A stretch of DNA of 7,142 bases from an uncultured Clostridia bacterium. GTDB taxonomy: Bacteria > Bacillota_A > Clostridia > TANB77 > CAG-508. This document shows positions 1,384 to 4,174 of this stretch, in pieces. Below the pieces are notes generated by a model. The model did no database searches. It was not told the DNA's origin and was given only the letters and a program-made list of their open reading frames with translations. The DNA lies in the NCBI GenBank assembly GCA_944388685.1, contig CALXJS010000071.1:1-7142 (forward strand), read 5' to 3'. The position numbers were made by a program, and so were the translations under genes. Numbering within the stretch: the first letter of the stretch is position 1; every line of letters begins with the position of its first letter.

Positions 1384-3516
1384 TTATTTTTCAACTCTTT
1401 CTTCTGATTTGTTTTCTGCCAAGTCTTTCATAGTTAAATTAATTCTACCTTGCTCATCGATATCTGTAACTCTTACAGTTACCTTGTCTCCAACATGTAA
1501 AACATCTTCTACGTGCTTAATTCTTTCTTTAGAGATTTGAGAAATATGTAACAATCCTTCTTTTCCTCCGCATCCTAAATCTACAAATGCTCCAAAGTTC
1601 ATAATTCTAACCACTTCTCCATAATAGATTCCATCTACTTCTACTTCTCTTACAATGTCTTCAATCATTTCTAACGCTTGTTCTGCTTTTTTGCTATCAT
1701 TTGAGTAAATAAATACTTGTCCATCTTCTTCTATATCGATTTTGACACCTGTTTCTTCGATAATTTTATTAATTGTTTTTCCACCAGTTCCAATAACATC
1801 TTTAATTTTATCAACTTTAATTTGTGTGCTAACAATTCTTGGTGCATATGGAGAAATATCTGCCCTTGGTTTATCTAATACAGGAAGCATAACATCTTCT
1901 AATATATGTTTCCTAGCAATTCTTGTTTTTTCAAAAGCTTCTTTAATAATATCATAAGATAATCCATCAACCTTAATATCTACTTGAATAGCTGTAATAC
2001 CTTTTTCTGTTCCTCCAACTTTAAAATCCATGTCTCCAAAGAAGTCTTCAATTCCTTGAATGTCGACTAACATCACATAATCTTTTTCATTATCTGGATT
2101 TGTAACCAACCCTGTTGAAATACCTGCAACTGGTCTTTTAATTGGTACACCTGCATCCATTAATGCTAACGTACTACCACAAATACTTGCTTGTGATGTT
2201 GAACCATTTGAAGACAATACTTCTGATACCACTCTGATAGCATATGGAAATTCTTCTTTTGATGGGATAACTGGTACCAATGCTTTTTCTGCTAATGCAC
2301 CATGTCCAATTTCTCTTCTTCCTGGTCCTCTTGAAGTTCTTGCTTCTCCTACACTATATCCTGGGAAGTTATAGTGATGCATATATCTTTTTGATTCTTC
2401 TGTATCAATTCCATCTAATACTTGTTCTTCACTAATCATTCCTAATGTAGCAACAGATAATACTTGTGTTTGTCCTCTTGTAAATAATGCGCTTCCATGT
2501 GTACGTGGTAATAATCCTACTTCACATGATAGAGGTCTTATTTCATCCAATGTTCTTCCATCTACTCTTTTATGTTCATCAAAAATTAAATGTCTTACAC
2601 ACTTCTTTTCTAAATCATGAATAGCTTCTCCAATATCCCCTTTATGTTCTTCAGCTAGTTCTTGTCCAAACTTTTCTTCATAACTATTGGCAATTTTTTC
2701 TGACAATTCTGAAACATTGTTATCTCTTGTTTCTTTATCTTTTTCTTGGACAGCTGTTAACATATCTTCTTTAAAATTCGTTTCTACAAATTCATAGATA
2801 TCTTCTGGTACTGCAAATGATTTATATTCAAATTTTGGTTTTCCAATTTCTTTTTTCATTTTTGCAATAAATTTACAAATTTTCTTAATTTCTTTATGTC
2901 CTTCTTTAATTGCTTTTAACATTAAATCATCTGGTATTTCATTTGCTCCTGCTTCAATCATAGCAATTTTCTTTTCTGTACCTGCAACTGTTAATGTTAA
3001 GTCACTTTTTTCTCTTTCTGCCTCTGTTGGATTTATAATAATATTTCCGTCAATTAATCCAACATTAACAGCTGCTGTTGGTCCACCAAATGGAATATCT
3101 GAAATTGATAATGCTGCTGAAGCACCAATCATCGCTGCTACTTCTGGTGAATTATCTTGGTCAACACATAAAACCGTTGCTACAACAACTACATCATTTC
3201 TAAAATCCTTTGGAAACAAAGGTCTTAAAGGTCTATCAATTGCTCTTGATGTTAAAATTGCCTTATCACTTGGCTTTCCTTCTCTTTTAATAAAACTTCC
3301 TGGTATTTTACCAACGGAATATAATTTTTCTTCATAATCTACTGAAAGTGGGAAAAAGTCAATCCCTTCCTTTGGTTCTTTAGAAGCCGTAACATTTACA
3401 AGCACAACTGTATCTCCATATCTAACCAATACACTTCCATTTGCTAATCCTGCCATTTTACCTGTTTCAAAAACAAGTTTTCTTCCTGCTAATTCTGTTT
3501 CATACGTTTTAAACAT
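1384..3516 (-). CDS. pnp: Polynucleotide phosphorylase (PNPase)
   Basis: A 710-residue 3'-5' exoribonuclease that uses phosphate to release nucleoside diphosphates and, in reverse, adds tails; it acts as a trimer in mRNA decay. Domain order is complete: first RNase PH domain (about 1-130), helical linker (about 230-310), second RNase PH domain (about 315-540), KH domain with the VIGTGGKTI loop (574-582), and S1 domain (about 628-698, with GEVVRIMNFGAFVDLG and EGLLHISQIS). In EDFFGDMDFK, D491, D497 and K499 align with the metal-binding D486, D492 and K494 of E. coli; HYNFPGYSVGEARTSRGPGRREIGH-type signature residues are also present. The start MFKTYETELAGRKL follows AGGAGG at seven bases; a frame extension to 3555 has no such site and adds residues foreign to the family. 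It lies behind rpsO, as in E. coli, with a large palindrome in its leader. Confidence 0.98.
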   Translation of the reverse strand: MFKTYETELAGRKLVFETGKMAGLANGSVLVRYGDTVVLVNVTASKEPKEGIDFFPLSVDYEEKLYSVGKIPGSFIKREGKPSDKAILTSRAIDRPLRPLFPKDFRNDVVVVATVLCVDQDNSPEVAAMIGASAALSISDIPFGGPTAAVNVGLIDGNIIINPTEAEREKSDLTLTVAGTEKKIAMIEAGANEIPDDLMLKAIKEGHKEIKKICKFIAKMKKEIGKPKFEYKSFAVPEDIYEFVETNFKEDMLTAVQEKDKETRDNNVSELSEKIANSYEEKFGQELAEEHKGDIGEAIHDLEKKCVRHLIFDEHKRVDGRTLDEIRPLSCEVGLLPRTHGSALFTRGQTQVLSVATLGMISEEQVLDGIDTEESKRYMHHYNFPGYSVGEARTSRGPGRREIGHGALAEKALVPVIPSKEEFPYAIRVVSEVLSSNGSTSQASICGSTLALMDAGVPIKRPVAGISTGLVTNPDNEKDYVMLVDIQGIEDFFGDMDFKVGGTEKGITAIQVDIKVDGLSYDIIKEAFEKTRIARKHILEDVMLPVLDKPRADISPYAPRIVSTQIKVDKIKDVIGTGGKTINKIIEETGVKIDIEEDGQVFIYSNDSKKAEQALEMIEDIVREVEVDGIYYGEVVRIMNFGAFVDLGCGGKEGLLHISQISKERIKHVEDVLHVGDKVTVRVTDIDEQGRINLTMKDLAENKSEERVEK

Positions 3517-3529: not shown

Positions 3530-3557
3530 AAATTAAATATTTGCACCATTCTCAAAC

Positions 3558-3772
3558 TTTAGTAAACTTAATTTAGATGGTAACCTCTATGATAAGTTGT
3601 TGGGGACGTGCCAAATCGTTTCAAAATGAAACCAAAAGGGACAGACCTTAGTAAAAAAATTAAATTTATAAAATATTTGAGGTCTGTCCCTTTTGGTTTC
3701 ATTTTGAAACGATTTGGCACGTCCCCAACAACTCATCATACAAGCTACTTACCTAATCTCAAGTTTACTAAA
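3558..3772. repeat. Long palindromic (MITE-like) element between rpsO and pnp
   Basis: Two 61-base arms (3588-3648 and 3680-3740) are exact inverted copies apart from one position (A at 3594 against C at 3734), around a 31-base A/T-rich centre (3649-3679). In minus-strand RNA that one position becomes a G-U pair, so the rpsO-pnp transcript would form 61 continuous base pairs. Outside this, a second exact 12-base inverted pair (3558-3569 and 3761-3772, TTTAGTAAACTT) plus a shared GGTAA suggest the symmetric unit was once about 215 bp with a decayed base. Blocks such as GGGACG and GGTCTGTCCC resemble dispersed palindromes of Clostridia. No transposase gene or clear target duplication is visible, so mobility is inferred only. 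Confidence 0.85.
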
Positions 3773-3781
3773 ATTTTTTTA

Positions 3782-3809: not shown

Positions 3810-4073
3810 TTATTTTCTTATTCCTAATTTTTCAACGATTGTTCTATATCTGTTGATATCTTTTTTAGCAACATAATTTAATAGGTTTCTTCTTTTTCCA
3901 ACCATTTTTAGAAGACCTCTTCTTGAATGGTTGTCTTTTTTGTGAACTTTTAAGTGTTCTGTTAACTCATTAATTCTTTCAGTTAAAAGAGCGATTTGAA
4001 CTTCTGGTGAACCAGTATCATTTTCTTCTCTTTTATATGTGTTAATAATTTCTTGTTTTCTTTCCTTTGTCAT
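3810..4073 (-). CDS. rpsO: 30S ribosomal protein S15
   Basis: An 87-residue primary 16S rRNA-binding protein of the central domain, full length for the family (88-89 with the usual count). The RNA-contacting residues are all present: T20-G21-S22 in [17 protein letters not shown]26, and H40 with D47 and S50 in [16 protein letters not shown]. The ATG is preceded by AGGAGGTG at five to six bases. The gene has its own strong promoter at 4175-4203 and a leader of about 95 bases that can fold into a possible S15 binding site, so autoregulation is likely by analogy with other bacteria. It is followed by a weak terminator-like stem, the large palindrome and pnp. Confidence 0.98.
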
Positions 4074-4102: not shown

Positions 4103-4152
4103 CCTTCAACTGAGCCTAAGATTTGGTGCTTATCTATAAGCTAAGTAAAAGG
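4103..4152 (-). promoter_or_regulatory. Structured rpsO leader, candidate S15 autoregulatory element
   Basis: In minus RNA the stretch folds as one long stem: a 9-position helix with one U-U mismatch (4152-4144 with 4111-4103), a U-C internal mismatch, a 6-bp helix (4142-4137 with 4118-4113), one bulged U (4136), a 4-bp helix (4135-4132 with 4122-4119) and a 9-base loop. The 6-bp helix contains adjacent G4116-U4139 and G4115-C4140 pairs, in the same order as the G-U/G-C double pair of 16S helix 22 that S15 recognises. A competing small hairpin (4141-4137 with 4132-4128, loop UAGA) is incompatible with it. It ends some 20 bases before the ribosome binding site. Folding was done by eye. Confidence 0.45.
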
Positions 4153-4173
4153 TATGTTGTTTTTCAACATACC
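4151..4173. promoter_or_regulatory. Perfect 9-bp palindrome over the rpsO start point
   Basis: GGTATGTTG (4151-4159), a five-base loop, and its exact complement (4165-4173), immediately downstream of the -10 box. For transcripts coming from mrnC it is a stem followed by UUUUA and could terminate. For the rpsO promoter it spans +1, so it could be an operator or leave a 6- to 9-bp hairpin at the extreme 5' end of the mRNA. Its last two bases overlap the first helix of the folded leader. Confidence 0.6.
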
Positions 4174-4174
4174 T

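What the first reader, a model, noticed from the sequence alone, without database searches (positions are those of the whole stretch)
3558..3772. 61-bp perfect-in-RNA palindrome placed exactly between rpsO and pnp
The arms differ at one site, and that site is G-U in the minus-strand (mRNA) sense but A-C in the other. The pnp transcript would therefore carry an uninterrupted duplex ahead of its ribosome binding site. In E. coli the rpsO-pnp spacer holds a hairpin cut by RNase III, and PNPase then represses its own synthesis. Here a repeat-derived stem may have taken over the same position. The near-identity of the arms implies recent arrival, gene conversion or selection. The regulatory role is inference.
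Basis: partly seen in the sequence, partly recalled or inferred. Interest (0 to 1): 0.7.

Follow-up and report, generated by a model that had tools for sequence, protein, structure and literature searches.

The report
Mobile palindrome capping pnp leader hairpin
The perfect hairpin between two RNA-related genes of a gut bacterium looks like a small mobile repeat sitting on the tip of an older, conserved RNA hairpin, which suggests that this hairpin tolerates, and perhaps attracts, ever-changing mobile tips.

Summary
The palindrome is real: 61-nt arms 3588-3648/3680-3740, one mismatch (3594/3734), G-U in the pnp mRNA sense. It does not replace a regulatory stem; it caps an intact native hairpin (3554-3590/3738-3776). 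That hairpin, with core GUAGCUU·G·UA…UA·G·AGGUUAC and covarying neighbouring helices, is in 85 of 93 distinct rpsO-pnp spacers of the window and relatives and has no Rfam match. In the window's group 14 of 18 spacers carry GGGAC-type palindromes, always at the apex, of five types. Such palindromes are dispersed MITE-like repeats; for two types the arms also flank an IS200-like (Y1) transposase gene. Loops flip between species while arms stay alike (two pnp-locus pairs, four other loci), so template switching or arm recombination can explain arm identity without selection on the RNA. Role: the native hairpin is probably an RNase III-type processing and PNPase autocontrol site, as in E. coli (inference); the repeat is probably tolerated extra double strand. 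Observation confirmed; interpretation partly supported.

The parts
3738..3776 (-). 5' arm of the native pnp-leader hairpin (core GUAGCUUGUAU at 3738-3748)
   Evidence: fold; core in 85 of 93 distinct spacers; covariation
3554..3590 (-). 3' arm of the native pnp-leader hairpin (core AUAGAGGUUAC at 3580-3590)
   Evidence: fold
3680..3740 (-). first (mRNA 5') arm of the inserted palindrome, GGGGACGTGCC..GGGACAGACC type inverted repeat; its outer 3 nt coincide with the top of the native core
   Evidence: dispersed repeat
3588..3648 (-). second (mRNA 3') arm of the inserted palindrome; one G-U wobble (3594/3734)
3649..3679 (.). loop of the palindrome
   Evidence: loops at this site in relatives and at other loci invert between species
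3810..4073 (-). rpsO (ribosomal protein S15)
   Evidence: PF00312
1384..3516 (-). pnp (PNPase), ATG at 3516
   Evidence: PF01138, PF03725, PF03726, PF00013, PF00575
3782..3804 (-). small GC-rich hairpin directly after rpsO (AAGCCCGGTGTATAATCGGGCTT in mRNA sense), terminator-like but with a short U run; possibly a leaky terminator
   Evidence: folds; not called by the terminator scan
3735..3762 (-). promoter-like match TTGAGA-16-TATGAT inside the native 5' arm (10 of 12)
   Evidence: four of the six -10 letters covary with their RNA partners in relatives, so a promoter role is doubtful

Best explanation
Two layers. (1) A native structured RNA in the rpsO-pnp spacer of this order of gut Clostridia: a hairpin with an invariant core (7 bp, G·G mismatch, 2 bp) and covarying helices next to it. 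It most likely acts as a processing site for a double-strand-specific RNase (RNase III or Mini-III) in the pnp leader, through which PNPase limits its own synthesis, as in E. coli (inferred). (2) A MITE-like palindrome, related to elements whose inverted repeats flank an IS200-like Y1 transposase gene, inserted at the apex of that hairpin. Related species carry different palindrome types at the same tip, and tips are trimmed, lost and exchanged. Arms stay identical because replication template switching or arm recombination copies one arm onto the other and inverts the loop. The insert lengthens the stem from about 40 to about 95 bp without changing the conserved core, so it is probably tolerated, with at most a modest effect on pnp.
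For: Native hairpin: core in 85 of 93 distinct spacers; 12 of 24 pairs with both-side changes (shuffled mean 8.2, reached by 6 of 500), 91.8% of cells paired against 38-51% when slid; model hits in 74 of 117 family genomes, one place each apart from 9 mirror hits on the opposite strand; 30 of 30 fetched hits have rpsO before and pnp after. Apex position: 14 of 18 window-group spacers have GGGAC-type arms at the apex and 0 of 18 elsewhere in the spacer; of 67 others 0 at the apex and 7 elsewhere. Five types at one tip. Dispersed repeats: 104 exact arm matches; GGAGC/GACTC-type half-sites in 16 of 17 genomes, 111 in one, reversed-pattern control 0; TTTCC-type in 5 of 17, control 0. Inverted arms flank a Y1_Tnp gene for the window's type in L001, L059, L078 and for the GGAGC type in G012, G042, G019 (coordinates). 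Loop inversion: L095/L108 100% inverted vs 55% direct, L109/L123 99% vs 66%; among 34 flank-matched comparisons of MITEs elsewhere 5 inverted, 15 direct, 14 undecided.
Against: No transcript, RNase or PNPase data. 8 of 93 spacers lack the native hairpin, so it is dispensable. Genomes without a Mini-III hit do not lack it (9 of 12 have it, against 65 of 105 with one). The three transposase examples of the window's type share a neighbour gene and so are probably one locus in three genomes; the same seems true of at least two of the GGAGC examples. No target-site duplication was determined. The tree of the window group is poorly supported in places, so independent insertion, exchange between species and replacement are not separated. 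Short-read MAGs can err at palindromes; two fetched contigs end a few bases behind one (L340, L342).
Confidence: 0.7

Rival explanations
1. The long perfect stem is itself a selected regulatory device: species recruit palindromes to lengthen the pnp-leader duplex and so tune RNase III cutting and PNPase autocontrol.
For: Long perfect stems of different sequence (all with GGGAC-type ends) recur at the same tip in the window's group; structure favours the mRNA strand.
Against: Loop inversion also occurs at other MITE loci, so arm identity needs no selection; single-arm, trimmed, remnant and empty tips occur in close relatives (L093, L094, L097, L098, L099, L124, L130, L135); 67 spacers outside the group have no GGGAC-type palindrome at the tip, most tips there being 24-33 nt and ten over 60 nt. 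The strand bias is explained by G-U pairs of the native part.
Confidence: 0.15
2. The apex is an actively chosen target: the Y1 (HUH-type) transposase inserts MITEs into loops of hairpins exposed as single-stranded DNA, and the pnp leader is simply one such hairpin.
For: GGAGC-type MITEs sit inside outer inverted repeats more than chance: 40 of 74 copies have at least 9 of 12 complementary outer positions against 5.1% of cross-pairs, 0 of 2000 resamples as high. REP dimers inside palindromes (PMC3733652) and IS elements that target REPs (PMC1525189) are described (passages read).
Against: TTTCC-type copies show it only weakly (mean 5.08 vs 3.55, 2 of 2000 resamples as high, 1 of 13 copies at 9 of 12). 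Nested copies of the same family inflate the GGAGC count. The window's own type was not tested this way. Survivorship, with inserts elsewhere in the spacer removed by selection, gives the same picture at pnp.
Confidence: 0.4
3. Promoter reading: the conserved 5' arm is the pnp promoter (TTGAGA-16-TATGAT) and the hairpin is incidental.
For: 10 of 12 match in the window; TATAAT is common at this place in relatives.
Against: Four of the six -10 letters change together with their pairing partners (columns 21-24 with 53-50 of A2: 5, 7, 3 and 3 sequences changed on both sides), as expected of RNA; the 3' arm core is equally invariant, which a promoter does not need.
Confidence: 0.1
4. The palindrome is an assembly or chimera artefact.
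For: Inverted repeats are a known weak point of short-read MAGs (general knowledge); two fetched contigs end a few bases behind a MITE (L340, L342).
Against: Separate MAGs have the same architecture with different sequences; arm plus loop is about 80-130 nt in most, so a read anchored outside should settle it (inference); loops agree between genomes once orientation is allowed for.
Confidence: 0.04

Closest known systems
E. coli and Streptomyces coelicolor rpsO-pnp intergenic RNase III hairpin (with PNPase autocontrol in E. coli)
   Same: Same gene order and position: a hairpin between rpsO and pnp besides the rpsO terminator (PMC5872136 passages; E. coli autocontrol also in PMC3328962 passages)
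   Different: Sequence and core motif differ as far as seen; the host is a gut Clostridia lineage; cleavage and autocontrol untested here; the tip carries mobile palindromes
Actino-pnp RNA motif (Rfam RF01688)
   Same: A catalogued structured, cis-regulatory RNA named for pnp, in Actinomycetales (PMC2864571, table line seen; its place upstream of pnp is taken from the name and recall)
   Different: No Actino-pnp match to the window spacer (E up to 1), to six relatives (E up to 1) or to 12 loci of other Clostridia (E up to 0.5)
REP/REPIN and TIR families of Y1 tyrosine transposases (RAYTs)
   Same: Dispersed small palindromes, often near gene ends, with arms that also bound a Y1 transposase gene; some REP dimers sit inside palindromes (PMC3733652 abstract and passages)
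   Different: That text holds no word beginning or containing Clostridi or Firmicutes; here the arms are longer and stack at hairpin tips
Neisseria Correia elements (CREE/nemis)
   Same: Repeat-derived stems in mRNA that RNase III can cut (PMC2649163 passages)
   Different: Here the repeat caps a pre-existing conserved leader hairpin; cutting untested
Template switching between inverted-repeat arms
   Same: Arm homogenisation plus spacer inversion (PMC8604942 abstract)
   Different: Described there in yeast coding DNA; here inferred in bacterial MITEs and a leader hairpin

Membership tests
MITE of a Y1 (IS200-like/RAYT-type) transposase family | dispersed multi-copy repeat | tested here: met
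   104 exact arm occurrences in 92 stretches, the two arms of a palindrome counting apart; other tip types 111 and 56 half-sites in two genomes. Not testable in the window's own genome
MITE of a Y1 (IS200-like/RAYT-type) transposase family | terminal repeats shared with elements that carry the transposase | tested here: met
   Y1_Tnp ORFs between inverted arms of the window's type in L001, L059, L078, probably one locus in three genomes (same neighbouring long ORF)
MITE of a Y1 (IS200-like/RAYT-type) transposase family | filled and empty orthologous sites | tested here: met
   GGAC-type arms at the pnp apex in 14 of 18 group spacers; L093 a remnant, L097, L099, L135 without
MITE of a Y1 (IS200-like/RAYT-type) transposase family | defined element ends and target-site duplication or target rule | tested here: inconclusive
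   shared ends TGTCCAATTG seen for the TTTCC type; no duplication established; ends of the window's type not settled
CGTC-tagged REP superfamily (PMC3733652) | stem of 8-9 bp, loop of 4-5, no association with a transposase gene | tested here: not met
   arms of 46-60 nt in the palindromic tips and Y1_Tnp between arms
E. coli-type PNPase autocontrol leader | hairpin between rpsO and pnp, ahead of the pnp RBS | tested here: met
E. coli-type PNPase autocontrol leader | RNase III cleavage of the stem | not testable with these tools
   no RNA data
E. coli-type PNPase autocontrol leader | PNPase represses its own synthesis through the processed leader | not testable with these tools
   no expression data
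Actino-pnp (RF01688) | match to the covariance model | tested here: not met
Mini-III (MrnC) substrate | AGGU/ACCU duplex site | tested here: inconclusive
   the AGGU of the 3' core faces GCUU, not ACCU; no co-occurrence with a Mini-III hit; consensus from PMC4357697 passages

The most novel reading that the evidence does not exclude
Clostridia share a class-wide family of pnp-leader stems built on one geometry, a conserved 6-7 bp helix closed by a G·G mismatch under a freely varying helix (window type GUAGCUU·G/G·AGGUUAC; type Y GUAGAUU·G/G·AAUCUAC; type X UUAGCA·G·UUA/UAA·G·UGCUAA), read by a double-strand RNase for PNPase autocontrol; and in the window's group Y1 transposases insert palindromic MITEs into the loop of this very hairpin, so that a core RNA-decay regulator doubles as a structure-directed landing pad.
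Probability: 0.3. Interest if true: 0.75.

Novelty: new variant of a known kind. Interest (0 to 1): 0.6.

Why it matters
It adds a conserved pnp-leader RNA that Rfam does not hold and makes PNPase autocontrol in Clostridia directly testable. It gives natural replicates: the same leader capped by five palindrome types, single arms, remnants or nothing, which is what one would want to build to ask whether stem length matters. And it warns that perfect palindromes are poor evidence of selection, since their arms can be kept alike by loop-flipping exchange.

Tried and rejected
Own genome: none is held for the window, so copy number in the window's own genome is unknown; relatives were used instead. 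Viral contigs (exact 20-mer), plasmids and phages: no match in those collections. Rfam: nothing at gathering; at E up to 1 the window's spacer gives 30 sub-threshold matches, mostly microRNA precursors, because a long palindrome resembles them; rejected. Mini-III as the sole reader: a short RNase III-domain gene (137 aa; called Mini-III from its size, recalled) lies upstream of rpsO in the window and was seen there in 4 of 17 relatives' loci (L095, L096, L100, L108), but on another contig in G019, and genomes without a hit keep the leader (9 of 12, against 65 of 105); not supported. Promoter reading: see rivals. My first combined repeat pattern was wrongly built for the GGAGC type and found only the TTTCC type; one search replaced it. 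Sampling limits: the genus sample holds 11 of the 19 genomes; family, order and class samples also overlap; the model search used strict filters and missed G018, G057 and G090, whose spacers L107, L191 and L127 do have the hairpin with long tips, so 74 of 117 and 56 of 143 are lower bounds. Rows dropped: of 89 rpsO genomes, G039 (rpsO split over contigs) was not fetched and L147 and L155 had no pnp on the stretch; one search used 74 of 76 GGAGC copies (two too near a contig end); one search left L380 out. Several comparisons rest on one flank only, and L301/L357 is a weak inversion call (83% vs 70%). Parsimony on the weakly supported tree gave 12 changes for 6 tip states; I use it only to say that tip types are scattered. 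Confidence was lowered from 0.72 to 0.70 on re-checking, because the transposase examples of each type are probably not independent loci.

Papers, what was seen: PMC3733652 (abstract, outline, passages), PMC4357697, PMC3328962, PMC5872136, PMC1525189, PMC2649163 and PMC2864571 (passages), PMC8604942 (abstract, outline); others only in search listings. Searches for a clostridial pnp-leader motif in print; none surfaced in the rows listed, which is not proof of absence.

Full report
Observation. The window reads (minus strand) RuvX, DUF1292, an ORF without a Pfam match, a GTPase, a 137-aa RNase III-domain protein (Mini-III by size, recalled), rpsO, pnp, then a mechanosensitive-channel gene. Between rpsO and pnp lie arms 3588-3648 and 3680-3740, 61 nt, with one mismatch (3594/3734) that is G-U in the pnp sense. 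Folded as pnp mRNA the region gives -150.9 kcal/mol against a shuffle mean of -51.5 (z -24.1, 0 of 200); the opposite strand gives -125.9. The fold runs on outward from the palindrome to 3554 and 3776 through an imperfect helix.

The repeat is dispersed. A 20-nt piece of the arm was found in 92 stretches of the genome collection (80 rows listed, from 19 assemblies, all titled as uncultured Clostridia, Eubacteriales or Clostridium sp.), 104 exact occurrences, the two arms of a palindrome counting apart. In many of the printed examples the arm stands alone close behind what looks like a gene end or before a gene start; elsewhere two inverted arms bound an intergenic stretch. It was not found in viral contigs, plasmids or phages.

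The transposase. In L001, L059 and L078 two inverted arms of this type lie about 1.2-1.4 kb apart and enclose an ORF of 251-284 aa; the 251-252 aa tested match Y1_Tnp above its cut-off (36.2, 33.4 and 30.2 bits against 23). All three lie next to a similar ORF of 1047-1055 aa (isoleucyl-tRNA synthetase by its motifs, recalled), so they are probably one locus in three genomes. Y1_Tnp genes occur in 25 of 25 genomes searched. The GGAGC type has the same build: inverted half-sites at G012:C6:10851-12397, G042:C29:8294-9826 and G019:C13:12526-14080 enclose Y1_Tnp hits; G012 and G019 both have an S1-domain hit about 2 kb away, so these too may be one locus. For the TTTCC and GACTC types no transposase link was looked for. 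The palindrome thus resembles the miniature derivatives of TIR-bearing Y1 elements described for RAYTs (PMC3733652, abstract).

The native hairpin. PNPase gave hits in 18 of 19 of these genomes, 17 of them at pnp itself (one, G012, a contig-end piece) and one (G015) only in S1-domain proteins. The 17 rpsO-pnp spacers were compared. All 17 share a hairpin with core GTAGCTTGTAT…ATAGAGGTTAC; the window's palindrome is, but for 3 nt at each end, the content between these two strings (3591-3737). Of 97 genomes of the genus, 11 of them already among the 19, 89 had rpsO; 88 were fetched. With the earlier loci and the window, 104 spacers, 93 distinct, were extracted; two fetched loci lacked pnp. The core, allowing 2 mismatches a side, is in 85 of 93; the other 8 are spacers of 61-108 nt except L172 (207); L161 keeps TTAGGTAAGTA, a possible deletion scar.

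It is an RNA. In 48 spacers with tips of up to 31 nt, 24 pairs: 91.8% of cells paired (shuffled mean 83.7%, 0 of 500 as high; slid versions 38-51%), 12 pairs changed on both sides (shuffled mean 8.2, 6 of 500 as high), covariation 0.230 against 0.093 (0 of 500). Eight core pairs never vary and frame a G·G mismatch; the lowest five pairs given are poorly kept (20 of 48 unpaired at the worst), partly from misalignment. RNAalifold on 53 sequences finds the upper helix and 9 of 19 pairs with double changes. A covariance model hits 74 of 117 family genomes, 56 of 143 of the order and 3 of 196 of the class; these three were already met in the narrower searches. The samples overlap and the filters lose long tips (G018, G057, G090). 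Second hits in a genome are mirror images of the same place. The 30 fetched hits all have rpsO before and pnp after. Rfam has no matching family.

The tip is the landing place. In the window's group (18 spacers) 14 carry GGGAC-type arms inside the apex and none elsewhere; among 67 others none at the apex and 7 elsewhere (the group was drawn by relatedness, so cases are not independent). Types at the tip: GTGCC with GACAGACC (window, L100; single arm in L098), short GTGCC (L107; trimmed in L130), GGAGC (L095, L108, L127, L129), GACTC (L096; single arm in L094, L124) and TTTCC (L109, L123; remnant in L093); L097, L099 and L135 have none. They share GGGAC-type ends; if the two GTGCC types are one family there are four families. 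On a tree of rpsO and pnp stretches the types are scattered, but support is uneven. At four other sites flank-matched genomes also hold different families close to the same place: L264/L311/L333, L265/L285, L268/L345, L276/L318.

Why the arms are identical. At the pnp tip, L095 and L108 have loops 100% identical only when one is inverted (55% otherwise), and L109 and L123 99% inverted (66%). The loop of L109 differs by eye from most other printed copies of its family, L276 being nearest, so re-insertion in the other orientation is unlikely though not excluded. At other MITE loci 34 flank-matched comparisons gave 15 direct, 5 inverted (4 loci, one of them weak) and 14 undecided, the last including the family swaps and two contig-end cases; some rest on one flank. 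Arm homogenisation with spacer inversion is the stated outcome of template switching between inverted repeats (PMC8604942, abstract). A G-to-A change in one arm of L129 against L127 is matched in the other arm. Near-identity is therefore no evidence of selection or of recent arrival.

Are hairpin tips targets? For GGAGC-type MITEs the sequences just outside the element pair with each other more than chance: mean 7.89 of 12 against 4.35 for cross-pairs, 40 of 74 copies at 9 or more. For the TTTCC type the effect is small (5.08 against 3.55; 1 of 13). So tip targeting is plausible for one type and open for the others, including the window's, which was not tested this way.

Function. E. coli and Streptomyces have a hairpin cut by RNase III in this spacer (PMC5872136, passages), and E. 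[quoted passage not shown] The clostridial core, invariant on both sides and double-stranded, looks like a protein-read site. Mini-III prefers ACCU/AGGU duplexes (PMC4357697, passages); the core has AGGU facing GCUU, which is suggestive only, and leader presence does not follow Mini-III presence (9 of 12 without, 65 of 105 with). I commit to RNase III-type processing with PNPase autocontrol for the native stem (about 0.55) and to a tolerated, near-neutral cap for the palindrome. Both are inference.

Beyond the order. In a class sample 44 of 46 genomes had rpsO; 29 loci besides G019's were fetched, and their spacers often hold other long hairpins. Seven of the 29 share TTAGCAGTTA…TAAGTGCTAA (one mismatch a side allowed): nine invariant pairs split by a G·G (6 of 7) or G·A (1 of 7), then varying pairs of which most still pair. 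Four others (L367, L377, L383, L387) show GUAGAUU·G/G·AAUCUAC-like ends (L377 with one mismatch), the same geometry as the window's core. Twelve of these loci gave no Rfam match. This is a lead, not a tested family.

Verdict. Real, repeat-derived, and more interesting than a take-over: a conserved pnp-leader hairpin, absent from Rfam, wearing interchangeable mobile tips.

Noticed in passing
L361, L362, L363, L369, L376, L378, L382 (and L367, L377, L383, L387), rpsO-pnp spacers: Other Clostridia have different conserved long hairpins just upstream of pnp, with an invariant helix split by a G·G mismatch (TTAGCAGTTA…TAAGTGCTAA; GTAGATTG…GAATCTAC); no Rfam match.
   Followed up: partly
L264 vs L311/L333, L265 vs L285, L268 vs L345, L276 vs L318: At flank-matched intergenic sites different MITE families stand close to the same place in related genomes.
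   Followed up: partly
L309, L318, L328 and about half of the GGAGC-type copies: MITE palindromes nested inside the tips of other REP-like palindromes, building stacked hairpins.
   Followed up: partly
L003, L010, L013, L014, L021 and others of L001-L092: Single arms appear directly behind stop codons; in several the stop TAG seems to be formed with the first base of the repeat (taGGGACGTGCC); reading frames were not checked.
   Followed up: no
L025: A near-perfect minimal palindrome built from two inverted copies of GGAACGATAGGGACGTGCCAAATCGTTTC-like sequence, possibly the basic two-REP unit of the window's type.
   Followed up: no
L001, L059, L078: The Y1 transposase with arms of the window's type seems to hold one fixed place next to an isoleucyl-tRNA synthetase-like ORF in three genomes.
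   Followed up: no
window 4150-4174: A terminator-like hairpin, called on both strands, between rpsO and the RNase III-domain gene.
   Followed up: no
L107/L132, L108/L134, L130: About 150 nt of extra sequence with further hairpins right after rpsO in three relatives, another likely insertion.
   Followed up: no
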